Below, one piece after another: positions 1,636 to 53,578 of a stretch of 64,000 nucleotides of DNA (position 1 is its first letter; every line of letters begins with the position of its first letter). The notes below the pieces were generated by a model. It saw nothing but the letters and a program-made list of their open reading frames with translations. It did not search any database and was not told where the DNA came from. Source of the DNA: Bacillota bacterium (GTDB lineage: Bacteria > Bacillota > Clostridia > Oscillospirales > Oscillospiraceae); assembly GCA_030535235.1 (NCBI GenBank), contig JAUNCL010000002.1:79731-143730 (forward strand), given 5' to 3'. Both the position numbers and the translations under genes were made by a program.

Positions 1636-1660
1636 GTGTTTTATGGCGGCGAAAGCCCCC

Positions 1661-1689
1661 TTGACAACCGGGAAAAAATAGGATACACT
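1661..1689 (+). promoter_or_regulatory. Promoter of the riboswitch-ATPase transcript
   Basis: TTGACA (1661-1666) and TACACT (1684-1689) have a 17-base spacer. Transcription would start near 1696, just ahead of the conserved riboswitch core. Confidence 0.8.
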
Positions 1690-1695
1690 TGCCAT

Positions 1696-1826: not shown

Positions 1827-1878
1827 GTTTTTCTGGGCCCTCCAGCCTACCTCCAGATACAGAAAGGAAGGGTTTCCT

Positions 1879-4461: not shown

Positions 4462-4477
4462 GGCAAACGAACTACCT

Positions 4478-4508
4478 CCCCCGCATCCGTCAGGATGCGG
4501 GGGTCTTT
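4478..4508 (+). terminator. Intrinsic terminator after the P-type ATPase
   Basis: CCCCCGCATCC and GGATGCGGGGG form an 11-base perfect stem with a 4-base loop, followed by TCTTT. Confidence 0.8.
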
Positions 4509-4636
4509 GCGTTCCGGGGAGTGAGGAAACCGGGCATTTAACAGAAAACAGGTTTTTGATTTAACATAGAAGGTCTATCCTGTGCACAGAAAGGGATGTG
4601 CCGGGTCTTCTTCTCCGGCTCATCCGGGAGGAAATC

Positions 4637-7662: not shown

Positions 7663-7732
7663 CAGCCCCTGCCTCCAGCCCATATAATCAAGGCAGGAAA
7701 TCATGCGGAATCCCGCGGAAAGAAGGCATACT

Positions 7733-8035
7733 ATGGCTGAGATCATTGATATTTCCGGCAATGCGCCCGAGGAGGAGGAGAACATCTTCCTGCTGGAGGA
7801 CGAAAACGGCAACGAAGTCCCCTTTGAGTTCGTGGACCTGATGGAGTACGAGGGGGAGGAGTACCTCTTCCTGCTGCCCGTCCAGGACGACGACGGCGAG
7901 GTGGTCATCCTCCATGTGGACATGGTGGACGGCGACGAGGAGGCCTACAGCGGCGTGGAGAGCGACGAGCTGCTCACCATCCTCTTCAACCTGTTCAAGG
8001 AAAAGTACCAGGACGTATACGAGTTTGAAGACTAA
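7733..8035 (+). CDS. DUF1292 family acidic protein
   Basis: This 100-residue, strongly acidic protein matches the DUF1292 family (YrzB-like), with the recurring pattern of FLLEDENGNEVPFEFVDLMEY then EYLFLLPV and a conserved IL(F/H)V core. Function of the family is unknown; in many Firmicutes the gene sits near translation or RNA genes. The ATG at 7733 has GAAGG 7 bases upstream and gives the usual family N-terminus; an in-frame ATG at 7703 also has a plausible site and would add ten residues. It ends ahead of a good terminator. Confidence 0.85.
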   Translation: MAEIIDISGNAPEEEENIFLLEDENGNEVPFEFVDLMEYEGEEYLFLLPVQDDDGEVVILHVDMVDGDEEAYSGVESDELLTILFNLFKEKYQDVYEFED

Positions 8036-8041
8036 GCAAAG

Positions 8042-8070
8042 GGCGGACGCGGCAGCGTCCGCCGTTTCTT
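8042..8070 (+). terminator. Intrinsic terminator after DUF1292 gene
   Basis: GGCGGACGC and GCGTCCGCC form a 9-base stem around GGCA, followed by GTTTCTT. Confidence 0.75.
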
Positions 8071-8106
8071 ATATATCAGAACCATAGTAATGTCCTCCAC
8101 GTTCCG

Positions 8107-8156
8107 CCCTCTCAGTCAGCTTCGCTGACAGCTCTCCCAGAGGGAGAGCCAAGGGG
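8107..8156. repeat. Family A palindromic element, half copy (A1)
   Basis: The sequence CCCTCTCAGTCAGC continues through a small stem to CTCTCCCAGAGGGAGAGCC. It is one half of the larger symmetrical element seen complete at 12835, 12974, 29960 and 56742. Confidence 0.75.
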
Positions 8157-8192
8157 CAAAAAATCCCCCATGGATCACTCCATGGGGGATTT
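8155..8192 (-). terminator. Intrinsic terminator after hbd
   Basis: AAATCCCCCATGGA (8161-8174) and its exact complement (8179-8192) form a 14-base stem; read on the minus strand it is followed by a run of T, so it ends the crt-hbd transcript. Confidence 0.85.
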
Positions 8193-8224
8193 GAAAACGT
8201 TATTTTGTTAAACCGGGCTGAGGA

Positions 8225-9073
8225 TTAATACTTGTAGAAGCCCTCGCCGGTCTTGCGGCCCAGCAGGCCTGCGCGGACCATCTTCTTCATGGTCAGAGCG
8301 GGACGATACTTGGAGTCGCCGGTCTCGGTGAAGATGGTCTCCATGATAGCCAGGCAGATGTCCAGACCAACCAGGTCGGCCAGAGCCAGGGGGCCCATCT
8401 TGTGGTTAGCACCGTACATCATAGCGGTGTCGATGTCTTCCTTGGAAGCGATGCCGTTCTCCAGGACGATGATAGCCTCGTTGATCATGGGGAACAGGAT
8501 GCGGTTGACAACGAAGCCGGGAGCCTCGCCGACCTCGACGGGGGACTTGCCGATCTCAGCAGCGCAGTCATAGACAGCCTGGAAGGTCTCGTCGTTGGTA
8601 CGAGCGCCGCGGATGACCTCGACCAGCTTCATAGCGGGAGCGGGGTTGAAGAAGTGCATGCCCAGGACCTTCTCAGGACGCTTGGTAGCAGCAGCGATAG
8701 CGGTGATGGAGATGGAGGAGGTGTTGGAAGCCAGGATGGTCTCGGGCTTGCACAGCTCGTCCAGTTCCTTGAAGATGCTCTTCTTGATGTCCAGAACTTC
8801 GATAGCAGCCTCAACGACCAGGTCGCAGTCAGCGGCGTCAGCCAGCTCCAGGGTGTAGGTCACGCGGCCCAGGATAGCAGCCTTCTCTTCCTCGGTGATC
8901 TTGCCCTTGGCGACCTTCTTCTCCATGTTCTTGGTCAGGACGCCCTCGCCGCGCTGAATGAAAGCCTCGGCGATGTCGCGGACGATGACGGTCTTGCCAG
9001 CCTCAGCGAAAACCTGAGCGATGCCCATGCCCATGGTGCCGGCGCCCAGGACCATGATCTTATTGATAGCCAT
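8225..9073 (-). CDS. hbd: 3-hydroxybutyryl-CoA dehydrogenase
   Basis: This 282-residue enzyme reduces acetoacetyl-CoA to 3-hydroxybutyryl-CoA, the second step from acetyl-CoA to butyrate. The N-terminal Rossmann dinucleotide motif [14 protein letters not shown] is followed by the catalytic block [13 protein letters not shown], which holds the active-site histidine, then [17 protein letters not shown] and the C-terminal helical domain ending [11 protein letters not shown]. Length is typical of the single-domain clostridial enzyme. The start at 9073 has a perfect AGGAGG site. It lies 105 bases downstream of crt on the same strand and is probably co-transcribed; the gap carries a hairpin repeat that may alter relative expression. 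Confidence 0.96.
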
Positions 9074-9128
9074 GATAGTGTTCCTCCTAAATGAAGTATA
9101 TAAAAAATATTTTTTGACAAAGTAAGGT

Positions 9129-9158
9129 AGGGGGCGATCCTTCAATCGCCCCCTACAG
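9129..9158. repeat. Hairpin repeat between crt and hbd (family B-like)
   Basis: GTAGGGGGCGAT and a near-exact complement form a long hairpin around CCTTC. It resembles the element at 12733-12768, which has the same GGGGCGATT stem. In an operon gap it could stabilise the upstream crt message or reduce read-through to hbd. Confidence 0.65.
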
Positions 9159-9178
9159 AAAAGCAAGGGGGTCGGGGA

Positions 9179-9955
9179 TTAGCGGTTCTTGAACTTCTCC
9201 AGCTTACGCTTCTCCACGAAGGCCTTCATAGCGTCCTTCTGGTCCTCGGTGCCGAAGCAGGTGGCGAAGGCCAGAGCCTCGTAGGTGACGGCGGTGTTGA
9301 TGTCGCAGTCGATGCCGCGGCGCAGAGCCATCTTGGAAGTGCGGATAGCAACCTGAGCCTTGGCAGCGATCTTCTCAGCCATGGCGATGGCGGCGTCCAT
9401 CAGCTCCTCAGCGGGGACAACGTGGTTGACCATGCCGATCTTCTCAGCCTGCTTGGCGTCGATGGTATCGGCGGTGAAAATCAGCTCCATAGCGGGGCCG
9501 GTGCCGATGATACGAGCCATACGCTGGGTGCCGCCGAAGCCGGGGATGATGCCCAGGCCAACTTCGGGCTGGCCGAACTTTGCCTTCTCGGAAGCGATAC
9601 GGATATCGCAGGCCAGGGACAGCTCGCAGCCGCCGCCCAGAGCAAAGCCGTTGACAGCAGCGATGGTGGGCTTGGGGAACATGTCCACGCGCATCAGCAG
9701 GCCGTTGCCCAGCTCGGAGAAGGACAGACCTTCCTCCACGTTCATGTGTGCCATCTCGCCGATGTCGGCGCCGGCGACGAAGGCGCGGCCTGCGCCGGTG
9801 ATGATGACGACATAGACGTCGTCGTCGTGCTCGACCTGGTCCAGAGCCTTGGTCAGGTCAGCGAAAACTGCGGAGCTCAGAGCGTTCAGAGCCTCGGGAC
9901 GGTTCATGGTGATGATACCAATGTTGCCCTGCTTGGTTACTTCTACGAAAGCCAT
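9179..9955 (-). CDS. crt: Enoyl-CoA hydratase / crotonase
   Basis: This 258-residue crotonase dehydrates 3-hydroxybutyryl-CoA to crotonyl-CoA, the step after Hbd. The oxyanion-hole segments are present: AFVAGADIGEMAHM and NGFALGGGCELSLACDIRIAS. Two catalytic glutamates are in place, in the second of these segments and in GQPEVGLGIIPGFGGTQ. Length is standard. The ATG at 9955 has GGAGG 7 bases upstream. Thiolase, butyryl-CoA dehydrogenase and EtfAB, often clustered with it, are not in this window, so the pathway is split over several loci. Confidence 0.95.
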   Translation of the reverse strand: MAFVEVTKQGNIGIITMNRPEALNALSSAVFADLTKALDQVEHDDDVYVVIITGAGRAFVAGADIGEMAHMNVEEGLSFSELGNGLLMRVDMFPKPTIAAVNGFALGGGCELSLACDIRIASEKAKFGQPEVGLGIIPGFGGTQRMARIIGTGPAMELIFTADTIDAKQAEKIGMVNHVVPAEELMDAAIAMAEKIAAKAQVAIRTSKMALRRGIDCDINTAVTYEALAFATCFGTEDQKDAMKAFVEKRKLEKFKNR

Positions 9956-10040
9956 TGTGTTACCTCCTAAAAATTGGGGATACGATCCAATCGAAATTGG
10001 TTATACGGTCGCTTTTCACCCGTATAAAACTGTCGAAGTT

Positions 10041-10069
10041 AGTATACTTCAATTTTTCCAGCGGTACAA
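10041..10069 (-). promoter_or_regulatory. crt-hbd promoter
   Basis: On the minus strand TTGTAC (10064-10069) and TATACT (10041-10046) are spaced 17 bases. The -10 element is flanked by an interrupted inverted repeat, GAAGT and ACTTC (10035-10050), a possible operator. Start of transcription would be near 10034, leaving a leader of about 80 bases. Confidence 0.65.
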
Positions 10070-10140
10070 GGTTAATTTGTTCGATGATTTACCTAAAAAA
10101 TAAGAAATAAAAGCTTCATTTCTGTTAACTTTTGGTGCAT

Positions 10141-10166
10141 GATTTATGTCAGAATTGACATAAATC
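10141..10166. promoter_or_regulatory. Perfect palindrome upstream of crt and hpf
   Basis: GATTTATGTC and GACATAAATC are exact complements around AGAATT, a 10-base inverted repeat in the roughly 450-base gap between divergent crt and hpf. It has no T tract and looks like a regulator site. The rest of the gap holds the two promoters and a GC-rich stretch near 10180-10230, with no gene. Confidence 0.55.
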
Positions 10167-10283
10167 TGTCGAACGGGGCAGGCCGGCCGGAGGGGCACGA
10201 CCGGCGGGCAGCGGACCGCCCGCCTCCATTGTGCTAAATCGCTAAAATCAAGAGGAAAATTCTCAGAAATATGGTATTTTTAC

Positions 10284-43583: not shown

Positions 43584-44329
43584 GCGAACTTCTCGGGGCA
43601 CATGAGGAAGAAGACCTTGTTGCCGGACTGGGACACCACCAGCTCGTCGGCCTCGGTGCAGATGTTCCAGCGGAGGTCGGCGGCGTTTTTCAGGGTCTGG
43701 CAGAAAGCGGCGCCGTCGGTGGAGGCGTCCAGGGTGAACACGTAGCCCAGGAAGGGGATGGTACCGATGGCGGGGCCGAAGGAGGCCCCCTCGGCAAAGC
43801 CGGTGATCTCGGTGTTGCCAAAGCCCATCAGCAGGCCGGGCTCCACCTCCATGGTCATGGGCATGAAGGGGATGCTCTCATGGGCAATGACCCGGTTGGC
43901 CACATCCAGGGCGGAGCCGGAGTGGTCGGCCTGGAAGACCCCTTTCAGGGTCTGGCCCACGGTGGCGGCGGTCTCCGGCTGGCTGGGGGGATCGGCGGGC
44001 TTTTCTGCCGGCTTCTCCGCAGGCTTCTCTGCGGGCTTCTCCTGGGGCTTGGTGGCAGGGGTCTGAGGCTTGGTGGCGGCGGGGGAGTTGCTCTCCGGCT
44101 TGGCGGGGGGATTGGTCTCCCCCTGGGTCTCCTCCCCGGCGGGAGCCTCCTCGGGGGTCTCCTCCTCCTGGGGCTCCTCGGTCTCTTCGGTCTCCTGGGG
44201 GTCGGCGGGGGTCTCCTCCACCACGGACAGGGGGATCTCCTCCTCGGTCTCGGGGGCGTCGCCGCCGCAGGCGGTGAGGGACAGGGTCAGGGCGGCCAGC
44301 AGGGCCAGCAGAATCATCAGCTTCTTCAT
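43580..44329 (-). CDS. Lipoprotein with low-complexity linker
   Basis: This 249-residue lipoprotein has lipobox LTAC (C21), an acidic E/T/P-rich stretch (24-75), a P/K/A-rich linker with tandem EKPA repeats (about 85-115), and a globular C-terminal domain of about 130 residues (from GQTLKGVFQADH) that I do not recognise. The linker should span the cell wall. The gene is directly upstream of and overlaps the DHHW gene, suggesting joint action at the surface. GAAAGGAAAG precedes the ATG. Confidence 0.78.
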   Translation of the reverse strand: MKKLMILLALLAALTLSLTACGGDAPETEEEIPLSVVEETPADPQETEETEEPQEEETPEEAPAGEETQGETNPPAKPESNSPAATKPQTPATKPQEKPAEKPAEKPAEKPADPPSQPETAATVGQTLKGVFQADHSGSALDVANRVIAHESIPFMPMTMEVEPGLLMGFGNTEITGFAEGASFGPAIGTIPFLGYVFTLDASTDGAAFCQTLKNAADLRWNICTEADELVVSQSGNKVFFLMCPEKFA

Positions 44330-44355
44330 GGTGTCGTTTCTTTCCTTTCAATGTG

Positions 44356-44463
44356 TTACAGGGACTGGTGGGTGACCGTCTGGTTGGGCCGGAAGGTTTC
44401 CCCTCTCCCGATGACGGCGGACCTGTTCCCATGGGAGAGGATATGCACATTATGTGTCTTCAT
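44356..44463 (-). CDS. Candidate small ORF (35 residues) upstream of the lipoprotein gene
   Basis: An ATG at 44463 with a perfect AGGAGG six bases upstream opens a 35-residue frame starting MKTHNVHILSHGNRSAV and ending at TAA 44356, 26 bases before the lipoprotein start. It lies downstream of a good promoter. The peptide is basic and histidine-rich with no hydrophobic segment. It could be a leader peptide for the lipoprotein-DHHW operon or a free microprotein. Only the ribosome site and position support it. Confidence 0.5.
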   Translation of the reverse strand: MKTHNVHILSHGNRSAVIGRGETFRPNQTVTHQSL

Positions 44464-44507
44464 AGGGTCCTCCTGTCTCTAACATGGGAAAAGCATAATT
44501 AGAATTT

Positions 44508-44536
44508 ATTATAGCATAGTTCTCCCGCCGCCGCAA
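44508..44536 (-). promoter_or_regulatory. Promoter for small ORF-lipoprotein-DHHW operon
   Basis: On the minus strand TTGCGG (44531-44536) and TATAAT (44508-44513) are spaced 17 bases. Confidence 0.65.
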
Positions 44537-44573
44537 TGGGTGGAAAAATGAGGAAGTCCAGCCAATGCCCCCA

Positions 44574-44596
44574 TTGGCTCCCCTGCCAGGGGAGGC
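44574..44596. repeat. Family A fragment (A8)
   Basis: TTGGCTCCCCTGCCAGGGGAGGC is the terminal hairpin of family A without the rest of the element. Confidence 0.6.
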
Positions 44597-44627
44597 TTTC
44601 GGCCCCCATGGCTCTCCGAAAAAAACC

Positions 44628-44656
44628 TTGCAAAAATAAAAAAACTGGGGTAAACT
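44628..44656 (+). promoter_or_regulatory. MATE gene promoter
   Basis: TTGCAA (44628-44633) and TAAACT (44651-44656) are spaced 17 bases. Transcription should start near 44663. Confidence 0.7.
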
Positions 44657-44678
44657 AACTCTTGGTGTGTTGCCGAAA

Positions 44679-44722
44679 GGCGTAAGTCCAGCTAATTCTG
44701 GACTTACGCCTTTTTTCTTTTT
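44679..44722 (+). terminator. Terminator hairpin inside the MATE leader
   Basis: GGCGTAAGTCCAG (44679-44691) and its exact complement (44698-44710) form a 13-base stem followed by TTTTTTCTTTTTT. It lies between promoter and ribosome site, starting about 15 bases after the predicted transcription start, so the gene needs read-through. Confidence 0.8.
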
Positions 44723-44739
44723 TCAGGAGGTATCAAATT

Positions 44740-46155
44740 ATGGAACAATCTGTGCAAACCCCCATGGGGACCGCCCCGGTGGGAAAGCTCATGCGCTCCA
44801 TGGGCCTGCCCATCATCCTCTCCATGATGATCCAGGCCCTGTACAACATCGTGGACAGCGCCTTCGTCTCCAACATGACCGGCGGGGAGGCCGCCCTCAA
44901 CGCCCTGACCCTGGCCTTTCCCGTCCAGATGCTCATGGTGGCCGTGAGCATCGGCACCGGCGTGGGGGTCAACGTCCTGGTGGCCAAGAACCTGGGCCAG
45001 GGAGACAGCGAGAAGGCTGCCCAGGCGGCGGGCAACGGCCTCTTCCTGGGGCTGGTCCTCACCCTTGTCTTTCTGGTCTTCGGCCTGACGGGGGTACGGC
45101 CCTATGCCGCCAGCCAGACCGCCAACCCGGAGATCCTGGCCCTGACTATCACTTACCTGCGCATCTGCTGCGTGGCGTCCTTCGGCATTATCCTCTTCGG
45201 CATCTTTGAAAAGCTCCTCCAGGCCACCGGCCTGGCCAAGTTTTCCACCATCGCCCAGATCGCCGGTGCCGTGACCAACCTCGTCCTGGACCCCATCATG
45301 ATCTACGGGCTTTTGGGCTGCCCCGCCCTGGGGATCACCGGGGCGGCTCTGGCCACGGTCCTCGGCCAGGTGGTCTCCTTCGCCCTGGCCCTTCTCTTCC
45401 ACCTCACCGCCAACAAGCTGGTGAAAAGCGGCCTGGCCTATGTCCGCCCCCGGGGGCGGATCATCCGGGGAATCTACCGGATCGGCCTGCCGGCTATCCT
45501 GGCCCAGGCCCTCATGTCCCTCATGACCTACGGCATCAACCGCATCCTGGTGGGGGTCAGCGAAGCCATGGTCACCGCCTACGGCCTCTACTATAAGCTC
45601 CAGCAGTTCGTCCTCTTCGCCGCCTTCGGCCTCCGGGACGCCATCACCCCCATCGTCTCCTTCGCCCACGGCATGGGCAGCCGGAGCCGCATCACCCAGG
45701 GCATGAAGTACGGCATCGGCTGCACCCTGACCATCATGGCCGTGGGCATGGCCGTCCTCCTCCTCTTCGCCCGGCCCCTGTGGGGGCTCTTCGGCCTGTC
45801 CGGGGCCACCCAGGCCCTGTGCGTCAGCGCCGCCCGGGTCATCTCCCTGAGCTTCCTCTTCGCCGGGTTCAACGTGGCCCTCCAGGGGATCTTTCAGGCC
45901 ATGGACCGGGGCGGGTCCTCCCTCGTCCTGTCGGTCTGCCGGCAGATCCTCTTCGTCCTCCCGGTGGCCTGGGGCCTGGCCCGGCTGGTCTCCCCTGACC
46001 TGTCCAACGCCTGGGTGGTGTGGCTGACCTTCCCCATTGCCGAGGGCCTTACCGCCGCCATCGCCGGGGGCCTGCTGGTCCGGCTGTACCAAACCGCCAT
46101 CCGGCCCATGCAGCCCCGTGCCGGAAATCCTGCGGATTCTCCCAAAAAACCGTGA
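44740..46155 (+). CDS. MATE family multidrug efflux transporter
   Basis: This 471-residue protein has 12 predicted membrane helices in two MatE repeats. Family features include MRSMGLPIILSMMIQALYNIVDSAFVS near the N-terminus, here in two overlapping blocks, LLQATGLAKFSTIAQIAGAVTNLVLDPIMI, and a symmetric second half with LPAILAQALMSLM. MATE proteins export drugs or metabolites with Na+ or H+. AGGAGG lies 8 bases before the ATG, immediately after the leader terminator, an arrangement compatible with induction by attenuation. Substrate unknown. Confidence 0.92.
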   Translation: MEQSVQTPMGTAPVGKLMRSMGLPIILSMMIQALYNIVDSAFVSNMTGGEAALNALTLAFPVQMLMVAVSIGTGVGVNVLVAKNLGQGDSEKAAQAAGNGLFLGLVLTLVFLVFGLTGVRPYAASQTANPEILALTITYLRICCVASFGIILFGIFEKLLQATGLAKFSTIAQIAGAVTNLVLDPIMIYGLLGCPALGITGAALATVLGQVVSFALALLFHLTANKLVKSGLAYVRPRGRIIRGIYRIGLPAILAQALMSLMTYGINRILVGVSEAMVTAYGLYYKLQQFVLFAAFGLRDAITPIVSFAHGMGSRSRITQGMKYGIGCTLTIMAVGMAVLLLFARPLWGLFGLSGATQALCVSAARVISLSFLFAGFNVALQGIFQAMDRGGSSLVLSVCRQILFVLPVAWGLARLVSPDLSNAWVVWLTFPIAEGLTAAIAGGLLVRLYQTAIRPMQPRAGNPADSPKKP

Positions 46156-46313
46156 GAAAGACGCAGTTCTTGCAGCTTTGACCCTTCTTTTCCCGCAAAA
46201 AAAGTAAAAAAACCGGGTTTTCCCGTTCCTTTCTCCCGCATCCTGTGGTATGATAGCAAATCGTGAGTTATTTTCCCCTGCAACCAAAATCCAACCATAA
46301 CAGGAGGCCACGT

Positions 46314-47555
46314 ATGAGTGGAACAAGAGAGAAAAAGAAACTGTCCCTGACCACCTGGATCGCTCTGGGTCTGGTCCTGGGCGTCATCGCGGGTCTCGCC
46401 TTCCAGGGCGCCCCCGACATCGCCACAGAGTATATCAAGCCCTTCGGCACCATCTATCTGAACCTCATCAAGATGGTGGTGGTCCCCGTGGTGCTGCTGT
46501 CCATTATGCAGGGCATCGTCTCCCTGCAGGATGTGCGGAAGGTGGGCTCCATCGGCGTGAAGACCATCTGCTTCTACCTGGTCACCACCGCCGTGGCCAT
46601 CACCCTGGGCCTGGTCATGGCCAACCTCCTCCAGGTGGGGGCGGGCTACACCATCGCCACCGAGGGCCTGAGCTACGAGGCCGCCGAGGCCCCCAGCCTC
46701 ATGGAGACCATCGTGAACATCTTCCCCTCCAACTTCTTCCAGCCCCTGGCTGACGCCACCATGCTCCAGGTCATTGTCATCGCCCTGTTCTTCGGCTTCG
46801 GCATCATCCTGGCCGGGGAGAAGGGCAAGCTGGCCAAGGATCTGGTGGACAGCTGCGCCGAGGTCAGCTTTAAGGTCATGTTTATGATCCTGAAGCTCTC
46901 CCCCATCGGCGTCTTCGCCCTGATCTGCCCCGTGGTGGCCTCCAACGGCCCCGACGTGCTGCTCCCCCTGCTGAAGGTCATCCTGGTAGCCTACGCTGCC
47001 TACATCCTCCACATGATCGTGACCTACTCCACCGCCGTGAAGCTGGCCTCCGGCATGAGCCCCCTGAAGTTCTTTAAGGGCATGTCTGAGCCCATCCTCT
47101 TCGCCTTCTCCTCCGCCTCCAGCGTGGGCACCCTGCCCTTCAACCTGGACGCCACCCAGCAGATGGGCGCCCGCAAGGAGATCTCCTCCTTCGTGCTGCC
47201 CCTGGGCGCCACCATCAACATGGACGGCACCGCCATCTACCAGGGTGTGTGCGCTATCTTCATCGCCCAGATCTTCGGGGTGGACCTGACCATGGCCCAG
47301 CAGCTCACCATCATCCTGACGGCCACCCTGGCCTCCATCGGCACCGCCGGCGTCCCCGGGGCGGGCATGATCATGCTGGCCATGGTGCTGGAGTCCGTGG
47401 GCCTGCCCCTGGAGGGCATCGCCCTGGTGGCCGGCATCGACCGCATTCTGGACATGGGCCGCACCACCGTCAACATCACCGGCGACGCCGCCTGCACCAT
47501 GTGCGTGGACGCCTGGGAAAAGAAGCGGGAGGCCAGAAAGCAGAAGACCGCCTGA
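46314..47555 (+). CDS. Dicarboxylate/amino acid:cation symporter (SDF/DAACS family)
   Basis: This 413-residue transporter belongs to the GltP/DctA family. The reentrant loop 1 is SSASSVGTLPFNL, the Na+/substrate motif is ATINMDGTAIYQG, and reentrant loop 2 is around ASIGTAGVPGAGMIML; DRILDMGRTTVNITGD is the conserved TM8 with the substrate-binding arginine region. Substrates are typically glutamate, aspartate or C4-dicarboxylates. The ATG at 46314 has AGGAGG upstream. A strong terminator marks the boundary to the AT-rich island. Confidence 0.93.
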   Translation: MSGTREKKKLSLTTWIALGLVLGVIAGLAFQGAPDIATEYIKPFGTIYLNLIKMVVVPVVLLSIMQGIVSLQDVRKVGSIGVKTICFYLVTTAVAITLGLVMANLLQVGAGYTIATEGLSYEAAEAPSLMETIVNIFPSNFFQPLADATMLQVIVIALFFGFGIILAGEKGKLAKDLVDSCAEVSFKVMFMILKLSPIGVFALICPVVASNGPDVLLPLLKVILVAYAAYILHMIVTYSTAVKLASGMSPLKFFKGMSEPILFAFSSASSVGTLPFNLDATQQMGARKEISSFVLPLGATINMDGTAIYQGVCAIFIAQIFGVDLTMAQQLTIILTATLASIGTAGVPGAGMIMLAMVLESVGLPLEGIALVAGIDRILDMGRTTVNITGDAACTMCVDAWEKKREARKQKTA

Positions 47556-47590
47556 GCCCAGGTTTCCCTGAAAGACCACCCATAAATAAC

Positions 47591-47640
47591 AAATTGCCGG
47601 TCAAAGCAAGCTGTTTCTTGCTTTGACCGGCAATTTTTTC
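47591..47640 (+). terminator. Strong terminator at left edge of the AT-rich island
   Basis: AAATTGCCGGTCAAAGCAAG and its exact complement form a 20-base stem around CTGTTT, with a T run. It ends the symporter transcript. Confidence 0.9.
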
Positions 47641-47691
47641 AATCATTTATCGGTTCCATCCCATGGGAAAGGAAAATCTAATGTGATATCA

Positions 47692-47723
47692 ACGGCGGGC
47701 CCAAACTTAACCGGGCCCGCCGT
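47692..47723. terminator. GC-rich hairpin in island margin
   Basis: ACGGCGGGCCC and GGGCCCGCCGT form an 11-base stem with a 10-base loop, followed by AATTTTG on the plus strand. Nothing coding lies between this and the symporter terminator. Confidence 0.6.
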
Positions 47724-47774
47724 AATTTTGTAGGTGGGTGATTATTAAGCACTTACAGCTTCTTCGACAGACTG

Positions 47775-47817
47775 AAAACAACGCCGTGAGAGGAAAATCC
47801 TCTCACGGCGTTGTTTT
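47775..47817. terminator. Strong bidirectional terminator-like palindrome
   Basis: AAAACAACGCCGTGAGAGGA and its exact complement form a 20-base stem around a 3-base loop with T-rich ends. On the minus strand it would terminate the zinc-ribbon transcript. Confidence 0.75.
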
Positions 47818-47905
47818 GATGATGTAGATGCATTAGTGTGCTACCCCATATGCAATACAGTAGAGTAAATCATAGCCAATACACCACCATACAAAGCCCC
47901 AGCCC

Positions 47906-48019
47906 TTAAGGTTTATCGTCAATTTGCAGGCCACATCGCGGACATCTATGCCCGCCCCAGGGGCCTTGGCTTCTTGAGTAGGTCATAGGTGTACCGCATT
48001 TCGGACAATAAAAAGTCAT
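47906..48019 (-). CDS. Zinc-ribbon microprotein (37 residues)
   Basis: From the ATG at 48019, with AAGGAG 7-8 bases upstream, a 37-residue protein carries two C-x2-C knuckles, FYCPKCGTPM and HRCPRCGLQI, spaced as in zinc ribbons. In the -1 frame past its end the sequence continues as a hydrophobic, tryptophan-rich segment (KGWGFVWWCIGYDLLYC and on to a stop at 47833), so the gene may be a frameshifted longer zinc-ribbon/membrane protein or two overlapping microproteins. Direct function unknown. Confidence 0.6.
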   Translation of the reverse strand: MTFYCPKCGTPMTYSRSQGPWGGHRCPRCGLQIDDKP

Positions 48020-48291
48020 GTTAATATCTCCTTAGTATTTATTTGTTTAGAATACGAAAGATAAAACGGATATAGGTTTTATCATGAGCATATTACTCAT
48101 GGTGTACCACCACCTTATTTTTGATTTCTTTTGCTTACAATCGCATTATCTCACGAAAATTGGATTTCGTAAACTGTAATAGAGTTTTTTGTTTCGGTGA
48201 TCAGTAATATATTTTGTAAATTAATATATCCATAAAGTGTCCTGTTAGGTGTACTATATTACAACCAAAGGCTAAAGATTTAGGATAAGTG

Positions 48292-48323
48292 TCAAAAAGG
48301 CAGTCCCCATTAAGGAGACTGCC
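48292..48323 (-). terminator. Terminator overlapping the stop of the 550-residue gene
   Basis: GGCAGTC and GACTGCC pair around the stop codon region, with TTTTT following on the minus strand (48294-48298). The 290 bases between 48020 and 48309 are AT-rich and otherwise hold only promoter-like sequence. Confidence 0.65.
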
Positions 48324-49962
48324 AAAGAGTTTCGGTAATCCTCATGAGATTTTGTTGATCACGAGTGAAACAATTTCCCAGGAAGTTAACTAATTCCGTT
48401 CGTGTTAAATCTAATGCATCTAAAAGTGATTTTTCATCCCAATTTATTGCTTTTTTGATATTTTCATCTATCATACGCAAAAAAGAAATGAGACCATCCA
48501 CCCGGGCTATAGCGTCTCGACAAGATGTTTCGTCATCTTGTAATTTGTAGAAAGTCTCATACACATCTAATAATCTTTGACGTATATTTTGGATTGATTG
48601 ACGATATACAATCGTTTCTTTTATCTCATCAGAAATTATGTAGTTATACGGCTTCCATTTTTTCGTTTTAGGATGCTGTATTGAATTATCAAGTATTGAC
48701 TGAACAGTTTCTATTGGCAACAATTTACCAAATAAATATATTTGTTGTATCTTTCGAATTTCTTGTTCTTTTTCATCAAGATGCTCGAACGAAATTTGCA
48801 ACTCAATATCCAATTGCAAGCATGACAGATATAGTGTCAAATTTTGACTCTTATAACTCAGGTTTGTCGCCCAAATATCCTCAAATTCAGATATAAAAGG
48901 TGTGGTTGTATGTTTATCCCTGAAGATACTTACTGGTACTGGATACGTTCGATGGATATTAGTATTTGTACTATAAAAGTACGGTTTCGTAAGAACATAA
49001 AAATCAGGTTCATTAGTAGTTGAGGGAGCATATTTACTTGCCCATATAGTTTTATGTAAGATAGGAATGTCGCAGATTTCTACATGTAAATTATTATAAA
49101 TAGATTGAAGATGAATCAAATGTTCTAAAATATTGATATACGAATCAATTTCATCAAAATCACAATCATATTTATTCCAAATAAGTCTATTCTTGTCACT
49201 TATAGAAGACATAACAAGGCGTACAATAGAACCGTTTTCCAGCAAATCAAAACTGTTATCGTAGAATAGCTTTAATATGTCGCTTCCTTGCCGAGCCATG
49301 ATTCCAATATTTAATACTGTCTCTTCCGATCCGGACAGGACTTCCTTTAAAAAAGCGGTCTCATTCATCCCTTCCAACGTCGTATTCGAACCTTTATACA
49401 AACAAGAAACAGCACTCGGCTCATCCTTGTTATTTTTATTATCTTCACCAGTACCGCTGATACCGTTAGTCTCTGTCTCACTACTAGTAGTGCTTAGCTC
49501 GTTTATCGCTGAGATAAGCAGAATTTTGGACATGCATTTGGCCCATTCACTTTTATCTTTTTTCTCCATCATTCGATTAGCAATGGTAAACGCGGTGTCA
49601 CCTTGCTCAAAGGAAAATACCTTTCCAAAAAGTAATTTCTGCTGGTCACTGGTCGCATAATCTTGAATAATATTCTTTAAGAAATCTCCAAACAACGGGT
49701 CAGAAAACGACCTCGGATCCTTGATTAACTCCAAAAAAGTATCAGATATGCGCTCTTGTTCAAGAATAATATAAGCACAATGTTTTTTGGGTAATTGCGC
49801 CTCTCCGTTGAAGTATCTGGACGCATTGCTTGGATCAGTATTACGCAACTTGTTATCGTTCTCAAAGATTTTCTGAAAGTATCGACCTTTCTCGTTTCTC
49901 ATAGAAACAAAACATTCTATTGACTTTTCAAAGAAATCTTTAAATTTTATAGTATTTGCCAT
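48310..49962 (-). CDS. Unrecognised 550-residue island protein, possible regulator/sensor
   Basis: I do not recognise this family. The ATG at 49962 has GGAGG upstream; an open frame reaching 50025 covers the operator repeats and is rejected. The N-terminal third is helical and contains DPSNASRYFNGEAQLPKKH, which reads like a helix-turn-helix/XRE recognition segment. A polar, Ser/Thr/Asn-rich linker (about 165-200) separates it from a mixed domain (from NIGIMARQGSDILKLF through VEICDIPILHKTIWASKYAP) that loosely recalls the sensor domains of PLD-like fold found behind HTH domains. The C-terminal part is helical. There is no Walker motif, no transmembrane segment. Divergence from the microprotein operon and the repeats between them suggest it controls that operon. 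Confidence 0.75.
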   Translation of the reverse strand: MANTIKFKDFFEKSIECFVSMRNEKGRYFQKIFENDNKLRNTDPSNASRYFNGEAQLPKKHCAYIILEQERISDTFLELIKDPRSFSDPLFGDFLKNIIQDYATSDQQKLLFGKVFSFEQGDTAFTIANRMMEKKDKSEWAKCMSKILLISAINELSTTSSETETNGISGTGEDNKNNKDEPSAVSCLYKGSNTTLEGMNETAFLKEVLSGSEETVLNIGIMARQGSDILKLFYDNSFDLLENGSIVRLVMSSISDKNRLIWNKYDCDFDEIDSYINILEHLIHLQSIYNNLHVEICDIPILHKTIWASKYAPSTTNEPDFYVLTKPYFYSTNTNIHRTYPVPVSIFRDKHTTTPFISEFEDIWATNLSYKSQNLTLYLSCLQLDIELQISFEHLDEKEQEIRKIQQIYLFGKLLPIETVQSILDNSIQHPKTKKWKPYNYIISDEIKETIVYRQSIQNIRQRLLDVYETFYKLQDDETSCRDAIARVDGLISFLRMIDENIKKAINWDEKSLLDALDLTRTELVNFLGNCFTRDQQNLMRITETLWQSP

Positions 49963-49994
49963 ATAGGCCTCCGTATACTCTACATATGATCCTA

Positions 49995-50020
49995 GTGTAA
50001 CTATGTGTAATTCAGTGTAA
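49995..50020. promoter_or_regulatory. Three GTGTAA direct repeats with 10-base period
   Basis: GTGTAA occurs at 49995, 50005 and 50015, exactly one helical turn apart. The array lies 33-58 bases upstream of the 550-residue gene; read on the minus strand the copies (TTACAC) overlap a possible -10 (TACACT). This is the layout of an iterated operator for a regulator binding one face of DNA. Confidence 0.65.
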
Positions 50021-50063
50021 CACATATAGAGATACTACCGCAAGAACTTAATTACAAAAAATA

Positions 50064-50077
50064 TTACAGATCTGTAA
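50064..50077. promoter_or_regulatory. 14-base palindrome in divergent promoter region
   Basis: TTACAGATCTGTAA is a perfect palindrome whose arms share TTAC/GTAA with the direct repeats. It lies between the repeat array and the microprotein promoter. Confidence 0.55.
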
Positions 50078-50098
50078 AAAAGAGATCTGGTTTACAAT

Positions 50099-50126
50099 TT
50101 GAAAAGATAATTTGATATGATACAAT
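50099..50126 (+). promoter_or_regulatory. Promoter of the microprotein operon
   Basis: TTGAAA (50099-50104) and TACAAT (50121-50126) are spaced 16 bases. The 115-base leader can form CCCGC/GCGGG and CGATAT...ATATCG stems. Confidence 0.6.
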
Positions 50127-50245
50127 ATCTTTGCCCGCAAAAAGCGGGAAACAGCGATATGAGGGTATATACATATCAATTATTTACCTCTTATATCGAA
50201 TAATACAGGCTAAAAAATTCTAAGAGAAAGGTAACGGTGATTTTT

Positions 50246-50377
50246 ATGGGAAAAAATAATGGTGCTGGTCGTGCAAGCGGATGCGGTTGTTACTGCCAGG
50301 GCTTTAAAGGTCCTGACGGAAAAATTTATTGTTGGGACTGTTACTATAAGCGGTTTGGCTGTTATCCGGCAAAGTGA
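50246..50377 (+). CDS. Cysteine-rich microprotein 1 (43 residues)
   Basis: A 43-residue frame from the ATG at 50246, with AAAGGTAACGGTG upstream (a moderately spaced site). It has six cysteines at 13, 15, 17, 29, 32 and 39, in SGCGCYCQGF and GKIYCWDCYYKRFGCY. The GxxYC-x2-CYY part resembles microprotein 2. The composition fits a small metal-binding domain, or a disulfide- or modification-bearing peptide. It is the first gene after the promoter. Confidence 0.6.
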   Translation: MGKNNGAGRASGCGCYCQGFKGPDGKIYCWDCYYKRFGCYPAK

Positions 50378-50457
50378 AGCATAAAAATTAAGTAAGATAG
50401 GGCATCATCAACTGATGATAGCTTGGTGGCGTCCCTGCTTTTATGGAGGGTTCACTT

Positions 50458-50565
50458 ATGATTACCTACTGCTTTAAGGGTGCTAAGACATACCGTCATG
50501 GAACCCCTTTTTGCAAACATTGCTATTATTGCACCAACAAATGGGTCAACGCCATTTTGGAATGA
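50458..50565 (+). CDS. Cysteine-rich microprotein 2 (35 residues)
   Basis: A 35-residue frame from the ATG at 50458 with GGAGG 7 bases upstream. It has cysteines at 5, 19, 22 and 25 in HGTPFCKHCYYCTNKW, sharing G-x2-[FY]-C-x2-C-Y-Y with microprotein 1. Its stop is 11 bases before the YbjN-like gene, whose AAAGGAG site overlaps the end. A small hairpin lies between the two microprotein genes. Confidence 0.6.
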   Translation: MITYCFKGAKTYRHGTPFCKHCYYCTNKWVNAILE

Positions 50566-50576
50566 AAGGAGATTGA

Positions 50577-51071
50577 ATGAGAAAAATCAACCATACTATC
50601 GTTCAGGCGATTTACAAGATGTTTACCGAGGACAACTGGACGTTCCAGTATTCCGAAGAAAAGGGCCTTTTTCATTTTAATTTGGCCATCGAAGGACGAC
50701 TCAAATCGTTGAAGTACAACATCTTGGTAAGAGAAGACGGGTTTACTGTGTACGCAAACAGCCCTATTGGAGCAGACGCAACATCTCAATCCAGCATTGC
50801 TCGAATGTCCGAACTCACCACAAGAATTAACTATGGGATGTGGTTCTGTAACTTTGAACATGACATGAGAGATGGCGAACTCAGGTTAAAGTGTCACATT
50901 ACATGTCAGGATGCCCCGTCCACAGCCACGATCCAAGAGAGTATCTTCTTTCCCGCGCTGGTATTCGAAAAGTACGAAAATGCAATCATCGTAGCTGCAT
51001 GTACAAACGAAAACATTGAAAAAGCAGTTGAAGAATGTGAAAACAAAAAACTGGAGGAGTTACTGCAATGA
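50577..51071 (+). CDS. YbjN-like domain protein (164 residues)
   Basis: This soluble 164-residue protein resembles the YbjN/secretion-chaperone-like fold: an N-terminal helix, FHFNLAIEGRLKSLKYNILVRED strands in two blocks, a middle helix with SSIARMSELTTRINYGMWFCNFEHD, then GELRLKCHITCQ and a long C-terminal helix. Such proteins often act as chaperone-like or signalling partners of small proteins. AAAGGAG precedes the ATG. The last codons overlap the start of the 59-residue peptide gene. Family assignment is from pattern, not alignment. Confidence 0.72.
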   Translation: MRKINHTIVQAIYKMFTEDNWTFQYSEEKGLFHFNLAIEGRLKSLKYNILVREDGFTVYANSPIGADATSQSSIARMSELTTRINYGMWFCNFEHDMRDGELRLKCHITCQDAPSTATIQESIFFPALVFEKYENAIIVAACTNENIEKAVEECENKKLEELLQ

Positions 51072-51247
51072 ATAAGGAAAAGACTCTGTCTAAAGTTGCC
51101 ACTGTAGCAAAGAAGAACGGCTTTACTAAGAAATTCATCGATAGCACGAAGTTTGTATCGAAGAACATTCTGTCTTTCATGATCAAGGGCGTGACTGCAG
51201 GCCTCGCCGCCGCGGTCTTTATCGCGTCTGGTGGCAAGTGGAGATAA
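51068..51247 (+). CDS. Basic amphipathic 59-residue peptide
   Basis: A 59-residue frame begins at 51068 inside the stop of the YbjN-like gene (ATGA overlap), with CTGGAGGAG about ten bases upstream. It is lysine-rich (NKEKTLSKVATVAKKNG, KKFIDSTKFVSK) and ends in a hydrophobic helix, IKGVTAGLAAAVFIASGG, and KWR. The profile fits a membrane-active or membrane-anchored peptide, possibly a client of the YbjN-like protein. No cysteine and no double-glycine leader. Confidence 0.62.
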   Translation: MNKEKTLSKVATVAKKNGFTKKFIDSTKFVSKNILSFMIKGVTAGLAAAVFIASGGKWR

Positions 51248-51274
51248 CATCAAATAATGCATCCAGATAGAATC

Positions 51275-51303
51275 AAGGGGCTGTAAAAAACAGCCCCTTT
51301 TAT
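51275..51303 (+). terminator. Terminator of the microprotein operon
   Basis: AAGGGGCTGT and ACAGCCCCTT form a 10-base stem around AAAAA, followed by TTA and T-rich sequence. It marks the right edge of the island. Confidence 0.85.
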
Positions 51304-51325
51304 TAAGCCTAAAGGCAAAAAACAA

Positions 51326-51361
51326 ACAGGTGGAGCTGCCGTTTTGGGCAACTCCACCTGT
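51326..51361 (-). terminator. Terminator after rubrerythrin
   Basis: ACAGGTGGAG and CTCCACCTGT pair around an inner GCC/GGC stem; on the minus strand TTGTTTTTTG follows. Confidence 0.8.
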
Positions 51362-51403
51362 AGGAAATGATTTCGTTGTAACAGCGAAGAACTGTCACGT
51401 TGC

Positions 51404-51937
51404 TTAGTAGTTGTCTGCCTTGATCTCGAAGTAGGCCTGGGGATATCCGCAGACGGGGCACTCGGCGGGAGCCTCGTCGCCATACTCCAGGTGACCGCAG
51501 TTGCGGCAGTACCACACCTTCACGGCGGGCTTCTTGAAGACCTCTTCGGCCTCCAGGTTCTCCACCAGCTTCAGGTAGCGCTCATAGTGGGACTTCTCGA
51601 TCTCACCCACGAAGGCGAACATGTCGGCGATGCGGTGGAAGCCCTCTTCCCGGGCCTCCTCAGCCATGCGCTTGTACATGTTGGTCCACTCCTCGTGCTC
51701 GCCCTCGGCGGCGGCCATCAGGTTCTCGGCGGTGGTGCCGATGCCGGAGAGCTCCTTGAACCACAACTTGGCGTGCTCCTTCTCGTTGCCGGCGGTCTCC
51801 TCAAAGAAAGCGGCGATCTGCTCATAGCCCTCCTTGCGGGCGACCTCTGCGAAGTAGGTGTACTTATTTCTTGCCTGGCTCTCACCGGCGAAGGCTTCCA
51901 TCAGGTTGGCCTCGGTCTTGCTGCCTTTCAGTTCCAT
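51404..51937 (-). CDS. rbr: Rubrerythrin
   Basis: This 177-residue non-haem iron protein reduces hydrogen peroxide in anaerobes. The N-terminal four-helix diiron domain carries the E-x2-H style ligands in AFAGESQARNKYTYFAEVA, EETAGNEKEHAKLW and FAFVGEIEKSHYERYL; the C-terminal rubredoxin-like domain has VWYCRNCGHLEYG and PAECPVCGYPQAYFEI. Length is canonical. The ATG at 51937 has AAAGGAG upstream. It lies directly beside the AT-rich island but matches the chromosome's base composition. Confidence 0.96.
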   Translation of the reverse strand: MELKGSKTEANLMEAFAGESQARNKYTYFAEVARKEGYEQIAAFFEETAGNEKEHAKLWFKELSGIGTTAENLMAAAEGEHEEWTNMYKRMAEEAREEGFHRIADMFAFVGEIEKSHYERYLKLVENLEAEEVFKKPAVKVWYCRNCGHLEYGDEAPAECPVCGYPQAYFEIKADNY

Positions 51938-52169
51938 AGTCGTTCTCCTTTCAAGGTAATGTTTCGGTAAATTCCATGGACAACATGGGATTTCTGATCT
52001 TGGTAACATCATAGCCCAAAATTCGTCCTTATACCGTGACTTTAACACATTTCCGGCAGAAATGACAAGAAAAATTTTGGATTTTTTCCTTCCGTTAAAA
52101 TCTGCGCGCCGGCGCATACTATGACAGCGGCTTTTGCCGACACCATCATGAAACAATCGGAGGGAATGT

Positions 52170-52664
52170 ATGTCTCGCATCATCATGACCGCCGCGCTGG
52201 TTCTTGCACTCGGTCTCACCGCCACCGGCTGCGGCGCCAACAACAACGCCTCCACCGCCGCCCACCGCTGGAACGACGGGGCCTACAACGCCCAGACCCA
52301 GCAGGGTCTCTCCCGGGGCGTGGGCCAGTCCGACGGCAGCTACTACGCCGACCGGGACGGCCGCGTGGACGGCTACCACGCCCGCTCCGCCGACGGCAGC
52401 CGGACCGGCCTGGGCAACGGCCTGACCAACGCCGGGGAGGACCTGGCCCGGGGGGCCGGGGCCGCCGCCCGGGGCGTGGGGGACGCCGTGGAGGACACCC
52501 TGGACGGGATCACCGGCGCCAACAACAGCGCAGCTGACAACGGCAGCAACAACGGCACCGCCAACAATGCCGCCGCCGACACCAACGCCGGCAGCGGCAT
52601 CAACGCCGGCAACAGCGTCAATCCTCCCATCGGCAGCAACAACCCCCGCACTGCCGCCGGGTAA
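52170..52664 (+). CDS. Hypothetical lipoprotein, low complexity
   Basis: This 164-residue protein has a lipoprotein signal peptide (lipobox ATGC, C21). The mature part is rich in N, G, A, D and S: a middle region with DGRVDGYHARSADGSRTG and a short amphipathic NAGEDLARGAGAAARGVGDAVEDTLDGI, then an Asn/Ala-rich disordered tail. It faintly recalls YhcN/YlaJ spore-cortex lipoproteins but not enough to assign. GGAGGGAATGT precedes the ATG. The 230 bases upstream (51938-52169) show no gene. Confidence 0.7.
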   Translation: MSRIIMTAALVLALGLTATGCGANNNASTAAHRWNDGAYNAQTQQGLSRGVGQSDGSYYADRDGRVDGYHARSADGSRTGLGNGLTNAGEDLARGAGAAARGVGDAVEDTLDGITGANNSAADNGSNNGTANNAAADTNAGSGINAGNSVNPPIGSNNPRTAAG

Positions 52665-52677
52665 ATGGGATCCTCGG

Positions 52678-52707
52678 TTGACAAATCCACCGGGGCTGTA
52701 GTATGAT
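52678..52707 (+). promoter_or_regulatory. dapF-dapL promoter
   Basis: TTGACA (52678-52683) and TATGAT (52702-52707) are spaced 18 bases. Transcription should start near 52714. Confidence 0.75.
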
Positions 52708-52723
52708 GGGCCCAACCAACAAT

Positions 52724-52768
52724 GGCGTTTCTCCGGGCGTAGTCTGCCCGGAGAAACGCCTCTTTTTT
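52724..52768 (+). terminator. Terminator hairpin inside the dapF leader
   Basis: GGCGTTTCTCCGGGC (52724-52738) and its exact complement (52746-52760) form a 15-base stem followed by TCTTTTTT. It starts about 10 bases after the predicted transcription start and ends 18 bases before the dapF start codon. No lysine riboswitch fits in the short leader. Confidence 0.8.
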
Positions 52769-52786
52769 ATTTTGGAGGTATCTGCT

Positions 52787-53578
52787 ATGCGCTTTACCAA
52801 AATGCACGGGCTGGGCAACGACTACTTATATGTCTACGGGGAGCCGGAAAACCCCGCCCAGGCCTCTGTCCTGCTGTCTGACCGCCACTTCGGGGCCGGG
52901 TCCGACGGCATGATCTGGATCTCCCCCTCCTCGGTGGCCGACTTCAAAATGCGCATCTTCAACGCCGACGGCAGCGAGGCCATGATGTGCGGCAACGGCA
53001 TCCGCTGCGTGGGGAAATACGTCTACGACAAGGGGTACACCACCAAGACCCACCTCACCGTGGAGACCCTGTCCGGCATCCGCACCCTAAAGCTCTTCCT
53101 CCGGGAGGGCCGGGTGGACCGGGTGGCGGTGGACATGGGCAAGGCCGTGGCCGGGGAGGACCTGACCCTGGACCTGGACGGTGAGACCGTCCGCTGCACC
53201 CCGGTGTCGGTGGGCAACCCCCACGCCGTCCTCTTTGTGGAGGACGCCCAGGCGGCTCCGGTGACCACCCTGGGCCCCAGGCTGGAGACCCATCCCGCCT
53301 TCCCCGGCGGGGTGAACGTGGAGTTCCTTCAGGTCCTGGGGGACAACCAGCTCCGCATGAGAGTCTGGGAGCGGGGCAGCGGCGTGACCATGGCCTGCGG
53401 CACCGGGGCCTGCGCCAGCGCCATGGCGGCGGTGGTCAGGGGCCTCTGCCGCCGGGAGGACCCCATCGCCGTCCACCTGGACGGGGGGACCCTCACCATT
53501 GCCATCGCCCCCGACGGCACCGTCACCATGACCGGCCCGGCGGAAACCATTTACGAAGGAGAGACTGCCCTATGCTGA
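52787..53578 (+). CDS. dapF: Diaminopimelate epimerase
   Basis: This 263-residue cofactor-independent epimerase converts LL- to meso-diaminopimelate for peptidoglycan and lysine. Both catalytic cysteines are in place: MMCGNGIRCVGKY and TMACGTGACASAM. KMHGLGNDYLYV opens the protein and VSVGNPHAVLF is the second-domain motif. The ATG at 52787 has GGAGG 8 bases upstream. It overlaps dapL by 7 bases, so the last two steps to meso-diaminopimelate are coupled. Confidence 0.96.
   Translation: MRFTKMHGLGNDYLYVYGEPENPAQASVLLSDRHFGAGSDGMIWISPSSVADFKMRIFNADGSEAMMCGNGIRCVGKYVYDKGYTTKTHLTVETLSGIRTLKLFLREGRVDRVAVDMGKAVAGEDLTLDLDGETVRCTPVSVGNPHAVLFVEDAQAAPVTTLGPRLETHPAFPGGVNVEFLQVLGDNQLRMRVWERGSGVTMACGTGACASAMAAVVRGLCRREDPIAVHLDGGTLTIAIAPDGTVTMTGPAETIYEGETALC

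What the first reader, a model, noticed from the sequence alone, without database searches (positions are those of the whole stretch)
47641..51303. AT-rich island with an unrecognised regulator-like gene and a microprotein operon
The base composition changes abruptly at both ends. Inside are a 550-residue protein that I cannot assign and, divergent from it, four tightly packed small genes: two related Cys-rich microproteins, a YbjN-like protein and a translationally overlapping basic peptide. There is also a zinc-ribbon microprotein. No mobility gene is visible. The compact, self-contained layout with its own operators looks like a functional cassette (peptide production, stress switch or defence), not decay. 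Function is inference.
Basis: partly seen in the sequence, partly recalled or inferred. Interest (0 to 1): 0.8.

Follow-up and report, generated by a model that had tools for sequence, protein, structure and literature searches.

The report
Foreign gene cassette in variable spot
A Clostridial bacterium carries a small AT-rich set of foreign genes, including one large protein with no relative that the searches could find, in a spot where three sister genomes carry other DNA; it looks like an ordinary acquired accessory cassette whose job is still unknown.

Summary
In detail: 47571-51430 is a sharp AT-rich block (GC 38% against 63%) with a 550-aa gene facing a four-gene operon; five of six starts have strong ribosome sites, and a 10-bp-phased GTGTAA x3 array lies between. 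In the three sister genomes where the same flanking genes (symporter, rubrerythrin) are linked, they enclose 0.5 kb of unrelated DNA (two) or a different 10-kb lower-GC insert with a large serine recombinase (one): a plastic acquisition spot. The 550-aa protein has no convincing relative. The YbjN-like protein is a borderline Pfam YbjN member; in the six relatives whose neighbours I read, the other genes are missing. No search found the set elsewhere. 'Related microproteins' is weakly supported (p 0.015); the zinc-ribbon end may be damaged. Best reading: an acquired cassette in which an autoregulated orphan regulator controls a divergent operon, where a YbjN-type binding protein is translationally coupled to a basic membrane peptide. 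The island is well supported; the mechanism is inference.

The parts
47571..51430 (.). AT-rich acquired block filling the symporter-rubrerythrin interval
   Evidence: two-changepoint fit; absent from G465 and G475 at the same place
47591..47636 (.). strong hairpin just after the flanking symporter gene, probably its terminator
   Evidence: the scan lists it on the - strand; on + it is followed by a T run
47906..48019 (-). 37-aa zinc-ribbon microprotein (4 Cys), strong SD
   Evidence: generic zinc-ribbon Pfam hits, the 25 shown all under cut-off; SD AAGGAG
47833..47934 (-). 33-aa hydrophobic frame overlapping the end of the zinc-ribbon gene in another frame, no SD; possibly a displaced membrane segment
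48310..49962 (-). 550-aa orphan protein, probable regulator (HTH-like N-terminus by eye only; residues about 205-370 proposed as a sensor domain)
   Evidence: no credible family match; no relative; sub-significant similarity of residues 290-371 to the C-terminal domain of a TIR protein
48299..48323 (-). intrinsic terminator overlapping the 3' end of the 550-aa gene
49995..50020 (.). GTGTAA x3 direct repeat with 10-bp period just upstream of the 550-aa gene: candidate operator
50064..50077 (.). palindrome TTACAGATCTGTAA upstream of the operon promoter: candidate operator, chance level not tested
50099..50126 (+). sigma-70-like promoter TTGAAA-16-TACAAT of the operon
   Evidence: 15 promoter-like sites in the region against 12.2 expected, so not above chance as a whole
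50128..50240 (+). structured 5' leader with two stems (z -2.7), no credible Rfam family
50237..50377 (+). Cys-rich microprotein 1, 46 aa from GTG 50237, 6 Cys, net charge +5
50458..50565 (+). Cys-rich microprotein 2, 35 aa, 4 Cys, net charge +4
50577..51071 (+). YbjN-like protein, 164 aa
   Evidence: Pfam YbjN E 4e-4, 21.0 bits against cut-off 22; 37-40% identity to Flavonifractor and Pseudoflavonifractor proteins
51068..51247 (+). 59-aa basic peptide (+10) with one C-terminal hydrophobic segment, ATGA overlap with the YbjN gene
51275..51299 (+). hairpin closing the operon (z -4.2 over 51250-51310); on + its T run is short of the scan's rule

Best explanation
A lineage-specific, horizontally acquired accessory cassette sits in a plastic interval between a symporter gene and a rubrerythrin gene in a Clostridial genus of the family to which Pseudoflavonifractor belongs. 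It encodes an orphan, probably DNA-binding regulator that tunes its own promoter through the 10-bp-phased GTGTAA array and, through the intergenic region, controls a divergent operon: two small Cys-rich, probably metal-binding proteins, a YbjN-type (type III chaperone fold) binding protein and, translationally coupled to it, a basic single-span membrane peptide that the YbjN-like protein probably binds until release. Shown here: composition, insertion relative to sister genomes, gene order, overlap, repeat array, YbjN relationship. Inferred: that the 550-aa protein is the regulator, that it binds these sites, the chaperone-client pairing, metal binding, and any stress or defence role.
For: Block and GC3 contrast. 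Same flanking genes about 0.5 kb apart in G465 and G475 with unrelated DNA between, and about 10 kb apart in G474, which carries a different lower-GC insert with a large serine recombinase beside rubrerythrin. SD sites and gene overlap. The three GTGTAA/TTACAC of the island all lie in the array. YbjN relationship, with the YbjN fold and partner-binding role taken from PMC5398634 (outline with abstract, section 15) and PMC3575483 (outline with abstract). A Blautia YbjN relative also overlaps a downstream small gene, by one base (L063 4001-4669 and 4669-4911), a loose parallel.
Against: No sequence evidence for a DNA-binding domain in the 550-aa protein. No recurrence of the set, so no evolutionary support that the genes work together. 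The other five YbjN relatives that I read show no coupled basic peptide. The Blautia relative itself does not match Pfam YbjN. GC3 differs within the block (0.32 to 0.60), so its parts may have different origins.
Confidence: 0.4

Rival explanations
1. The block is a remnant of a larger mobile insert that has lost its mobility genes and is decaying; the genes are cargo without a joint function.
For: The same spot holds a recombinase-bearing lower-GC insert in G474; the zinc-ribbon gene ends where a hydrophobic frame without its own SD overlaps it; the set was not found elsewhere.
Against: The 550-aa frame and the four operon frames are intact, with SD sites, a promoter-like site, the array and closing hairpins. 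The block shares nothing clear with the G474 insert: tblastn of the six proteins gave only short hits at E 0.05 or worse there, blastn one 22-base match at E 0.037. I saw no mobile-element gene in the block.
Confidence: 0.3
2. A phage-defence or toxin-like module: the orphan protein senses a signal through a domain like that at the C-terminus of a TIR protein and switches on a membrane-active basic peptide held by the YbjN-like protein.
For: Residues 290-371 resemble the C-terminal domain of a TIR protein of G789 (E 0.004 for one genome; in the direct comparison BLASTP E 1e-5, 28% over 76 residues, hhalign probability 39%; global alignment of that half above all 2000 shuffles, z 9.2, but that half was picked by the search). 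The 59-aa peptide is basic with one hydrophobic span.
Against: With 391 genomes searched, about 1.6 hits of that E-value are expected by chance; the preceding half of the domain does not align better than shuffles (p 0.56); no PADLOC match for the regulator or operon proteins; the profile of both domains found only the own genome and one false hit in 219 genomes and nothing in viral contigs.
Confidence: 0.1
3. Assembly or binning artefact: foreign sequence joined into the contig.
For: Only the own genome has it among those searched; the assembly is in 51 contigs.
Against: Both ends are flanked by genes that are neighbours in G465 and G475 at 86-90% DNA identity; the only repeat pair near both ends is 14 nt at 86%, like other chance pairs in the list.
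Confidence: 0.05

Closest known systems
YbjN family (PF10722; AmyR, DR1245)
   Same: Profile match over nearly the whole family model (4-121 of 126) and clear homology to Clostridial YbjN proteins
   Different: Scores 1 bit under Pfam's cut-off; here it is third of four in a small-gene operon and overlaps a basic peptide gene, not standalone as in the Flavonifractor-type relatives
DUF5919 / PLD-like sensor domain of HTH regulators (the domain's company is my recall; the Pfam name was confirmed)
   Same: By-eye pattern of residues 205-370 (recalled, no positive test)
   Different: No match in the own genome or by hmmscan of that piece; hhalign to a weak Clostridial DUF5919-like set gave probability 0.9%
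TIR-domain protein of G789 (L048), C-terminal domain
   Same: 28% identity over 76 residues including a CDIP..H stretch and the closing FE..WA
   Different: No TIR domain here; similarity not significant after counting the genomes searched
Recombinase-bearing insert at the same spot in G474
   Same: Lower-GC DNA between the same flanking genes
   Different: About 10 kb, with large serine recombinase, TetR, sigma-70 region 4, flavodoxin/4Fe-4S and SLH proteins; no clear similarity to this block

Membership tests
YbjN (PF10722) | score over Pfam's gathering cut-off | tested here: not met
   21.0 bits against 22
YbjN (PF10722) | homology to accepted members along the length | tested here: met
   6 of 7 aligned sequences, this one among them, match PF10722 at E 0.01 or better, best 6e-12; the Blautia one does not; relatives are 20-39% identical to it
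YbjN (PF10722) | type III chaperone-like fold | not testable with these tools
   structure prediction off; profiles A2 and A4 find no PDB chain at E 1; the single sequence gives only a Thoeris ThsA chain at E 0.1, taken as chance
DUF5919-type sensor regulator | profile match in residues 205-370 | tested here: not met
HTH transcription factor | recognisable DNA-binding domain in the N-terminal 150 residues | tested here: inconclusive
   no Pfam or NCBIfam match there, one chance-level PDB hit at E 1; autoregulatory-looking array present
Genomic island | atypical composition | tested here: met
Genomic island | absent from the syntenic place in relatives | tested here: met
   G465, G475 and G474, the 3 of 15 other genus genomes where both flanking genes were found linked on one contig
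Genomic island with own mobility | integrase, recombinase, transposase or att repeats | tested here: not met
   none seen among the ORFs; end repeats no better than chance pairs
Known defence system | match to PADLOC models | tested here: not met
   nothing for five proteins; two weak generic hits for the zinc ribbon
RiPP / bacteriocin cluster | modification enzyme or exporter beside the precursor | tested here: not met
   none seen in the block

The most novel reading that the evidence does not exclude
The 550-aa protein founds a new regulator family whose sensor domain is shared with TIR effectors, and the divergent operon is a new chaperone-plus-membrane-peptide module that it switches on under attack or stress, spread rarely among Clostridia through the symporter-rubrerythrin spot.
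Probability: 0.12. Interest if true: 0.65.

Novelty: new member of a known kind. Interest (0 to 1): 0.3.

Why it matters
It documents a plastic acquisition spot in a Clostridial genus and an orphan regulator-plus-small-protein cassette in it. If the YbjN-like protein proves to hold the coupled basic peptide, it would suggest a function for YbjN proteins in Clostridia. As it stands, it is one of many acquired cassettes of unknown function.

Tried and rejected
Families: Pfam, NCBIfam, PHROGs, PADLOC for six proteins (microproteins 1 and 2 were given there as 41- and 40-aa frames, not the 46- and 35-aa ones) and for three regulator pieces. Regulator: nothing in Pfam, PHROGs or PADLOC; two NCBIfam hits far under cut-off (methyltransferase E 0.034, FliA E 0.22); its C-terminal piece alone gave Vps16_C (E 0.03) and PUL (E 0.16), far under cut-off. 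Microprotein hits Cytotoxic (E 0.2) and DUF1360 (E 0.31), basic-peptide hits BPD_transp_2 (0.029), photosystem I subunit XI (0.043) and a phrog (0.17), YbjN phrog (0.18): all weak.

Relatives of the 550-aa protein: order, 1 of 295 genomes, own only; class, own plus five weak hits of 391; family, 1 of 150, own only; these samples overlap. Genome contigs and viral contigs by 8-residue patterns: 36 and 9 stretches matched, none confirmed. Phages, plasmids, PDB (16): none; N-terminal piece in PDB: one hit at E 1. Of the five weak class hits, L048 is a TIR protein; by eye L049 is a spore stage II E-like protein, L051 an 892-aa frame of unknown kind and L052 a histidine-kinase-like protein; in L050 the matched strand has no frame of 60 aa without stops that looks like a gene. 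My first reading read only one strand, the wrong one for L051 and L052; one search corrected it. The same slip touched two of four zinc-ribbon hits (L070, L072), also corrected: by eye two hits (L070, L071) are inside MurT-like enzymes and two (L072, L073) in acidic zinc-ribbon proteins, so none tells whether the island's zinc ribbon once had a membrane tail (own plus four of 71 genomes).

Profile of L048 domain plus regulator domain: own genome and one false hit in a PLP-enzyme-like protein; in viral contigs 168 stretches, none confirmed; PDB none. L048 domain itself: only G789 of 97 genomes, none in plasmids or phages. DUF5919: four weak hits in 196 genomes, none in the own genome, none over cut-off, controls 0 of 14; one of the four (L058) is a frame opposite a MutY-like gene by eye. 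RNA families: six matches under E 5, none near its cut-off; Trp_leader at 50418 has 19.8 bits against 41. Microprotein 1: 1 of 345 genomes (own), one chance hit in plasmids (E 4), none in phages. Basic peptide: 45 stretches in viral contigs, none confirmed; none in plasmids. YbjN in viral contigs: 7 stretches, none confirmed. Whole block DNA: one 66-base hit at E 7e-3 in phages, none in plasmids, own genome self only. Microprotein 2 was not searched on its own outside the family libraries.

Literature: DUF5919 in 0 papers; HTH, PLD-like, sensor and TIR together in 0; the listings gave only the two YbjN papers of use. Alignment A3 contained a wrong-strand row (L006) and was replaced by A4.

Full report
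What was checked. The window is 64 kb of a 2.25-Mb, 51-contig genome. GC falls abruptly from about 63% to 38% between a dicarboxylate-type symporter gene (46263-47555; name by eye) and a rubrerythrin-like gene (51404-51943, minus strand; name by eye); the best two-changepoint fit is 47571-51430, nearly the interval between these two genes. The lowest 2-kb GC among stretches starting outside 44001-53000 is 0.5495. Third-position GC is 0.87-0.91 in the flanking genes, 0.32 in the 550-aa gene and 0.36-0.60 in the operon, so the block is foreign, and its two halves may have different histories.

Genes. The 550-aa frame starts best at 49962 (GGAGG upstream), not at 50025, and cannot be a chance frame. 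The facing operon runs: 46-aa Cys-rich protein (GTG 50237 best placed), 35-aa Cys-rich protein (50458), 164-aa YbjN-like protein (50577-51071), 59-aa basic peptide (51068-51247) whose ATG overlaps the YbjN stop by four bases. Counting the zinc ribbon, five of six starts have 5-6-nt SD strings; 7 of 141 ATGs in the island do, these five included. A TTGAAA-16-TACAAT promoter lies at 50099 (promoter-like matches as a whole are not above chance), followed by a 113-nt structured leader (z -2.7, 2 of 200 shuffles as stable) without a credible Rfam match. A hairpin closes the operon (z -4.2), and an intrinsic terminator closes the 550-aa gene. Upstream of the 550-aa gene, GTGTAA occurs three times at exactly 10-bp spacing; these are the only copies of the hexamer in the block on either strand, and 300 simulated sequences gave no comparable array. 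This is the layout expected of an autoregulated operator, but nothing shows which protein binds it. The two Cys-rich proteins share YC..FKG....G...C..CYY, significant only at p 0.015.

Where the block sits in relatives. Among 16 genus genomes (own included) rubrerythrin had a match in 16, one of them only at 61% identity, and the symporter in 9, of which 7 at 79% or more. Both were linked on one contig in three others: G465 and G475 have them about 0.5 kb apart with unrelated DNA between (flanks 86-90% identical), and G474 has them about 10 kb apart around a different, mostly lower-GC insert (0.32-0.56 in most 500-base steps) with a large serine recombinase next to rubrerythrin, TetR, a sigma-70 region 4 protein, a flavodoxin/4Fe-4S protein and an SLH protein. 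None of the three shares anything clear with the block (short hits of the zinc ribbon to the rubrerythrin gene's own zinc-binding end and other chance matches only). The spot is therefore plastic and has taken foreign DNA at least twice. The other 12 genomes are uninformative: symporter absent, weak, or on another contig.

What the proteins are. The 550-aa protein has no credible match in four family libraries and no convincing relative in the collections searched. The best class-wide hit is the C-terminal domain of a TIR protein, aligned to residues 290-371 (28% over 76 residues). Compared directly the pair looks good (BLASTP E 1e-5; z 9.2), but it was picked from 391 genomes at E 0.004 each, so about 1.6 such hits are expected by chance; the preceding half of the domain does not align above shuffles, and a joint profile found no bridge. 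I recall that HTH regulators with DUF5919 have a PLD-like sensor of this general pattern, but the tests of that were negative. So 'regulator' rests on layout and a by-eye HTH-like stretch, not on homology. The YbjN-like protein scores 21.0 bits against Pfam's 22, but 6 of 7 aligned sequences, itself included, match PF10722, so it is very probably a YbjN-family protein. [quoted passage not shown] PMC3575483, outline with abstract read).

Does the set recur? Not in what was searched. I read the neighbours of six distinct relatives (L005/L062, L006, L054, L061, L063, L064), by eye, over 0.8-4 kb on either side, with small frames read on one strand only; L065-L068 and the other plasmid record were not read. 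None has a Cys-rich CxxCYY protein, the basic peptide or the 550-aa protein in the part read. In the Flavonifractor MAG and Pseudoflavonifractor the gene stands alone between a DEAD-box helicase-like gene and an AzlC-like gene (names by eye). In a Blautia MAG (L063, GC 0.40) it overlaps a downstream 80-aa gene by one base, with an IS110-like gene upstream (by eye) and a DUF4062-TPR protein downstream, a loose parallel; that protein does not itself match Pfam YbjN. Microprotein 1 was found only in the own genome (1 of 345).

Mechanism. Most likely an autoregulated control protein with a divergent operon in which the YbjN-like protein binds the coupled basic membrane peptide, and the Cys-rich proteins bind metal. 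Layout and YbjN relationship are shown; binding, pairing and role are inferred. A decaying remnant of a larger insert is the main rival, favoured by the recombinase-bearing insert at the same spot in G474 and by the hydrophobic frame (47833-47934) that overlaps the end of the zinc-ribbon gene without a start signal of its own. I could not decide between a short intact zinc ribbon and a damaged longer one.

Verdict.

Noticed in passing
L042 (G475), 1236-1334, + strand: In G475 the same symporter-rubrerythrin interval holds an open frame for a 31-aa hydrophobic peptide with a short charged tail (no Pfam match), of the look of small membrane peptides of type I systems (recalled).
   Followed up: partly
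L074 (G474), about 200-10260: Same spot occupied by a 10-kb insert with large serine recombinase, TetR regulator, flavodoxin/4Fe-4S protein, sigma-70 region 4 protein and a 1336-aa SLH protein.
   Followed up: partly
L063, 4001-8494: Blautia MAG YbjN relative with a C-terminal extension and an overlapping small gene, upstream of a DUF4062-TPR protein.
   Followed up: partly
L048 (G789), 682-1728: TIR-domain protein whose roughly 150-aa C-terminal domain has no Pfam match and was found in no other of the 97 genomes searched.
   Followed up: partly
L055, L056, L057: Small family of proteins with hydrophobic N-termini and a domain weakly like DUF5919, in one Clostridial family.
   Followed up: no
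window 50128-50240: Two stable stem-loops in the operon leader (z -2.7), without a credible Rfam match; possible regulatory leader.
   Followed up: partly
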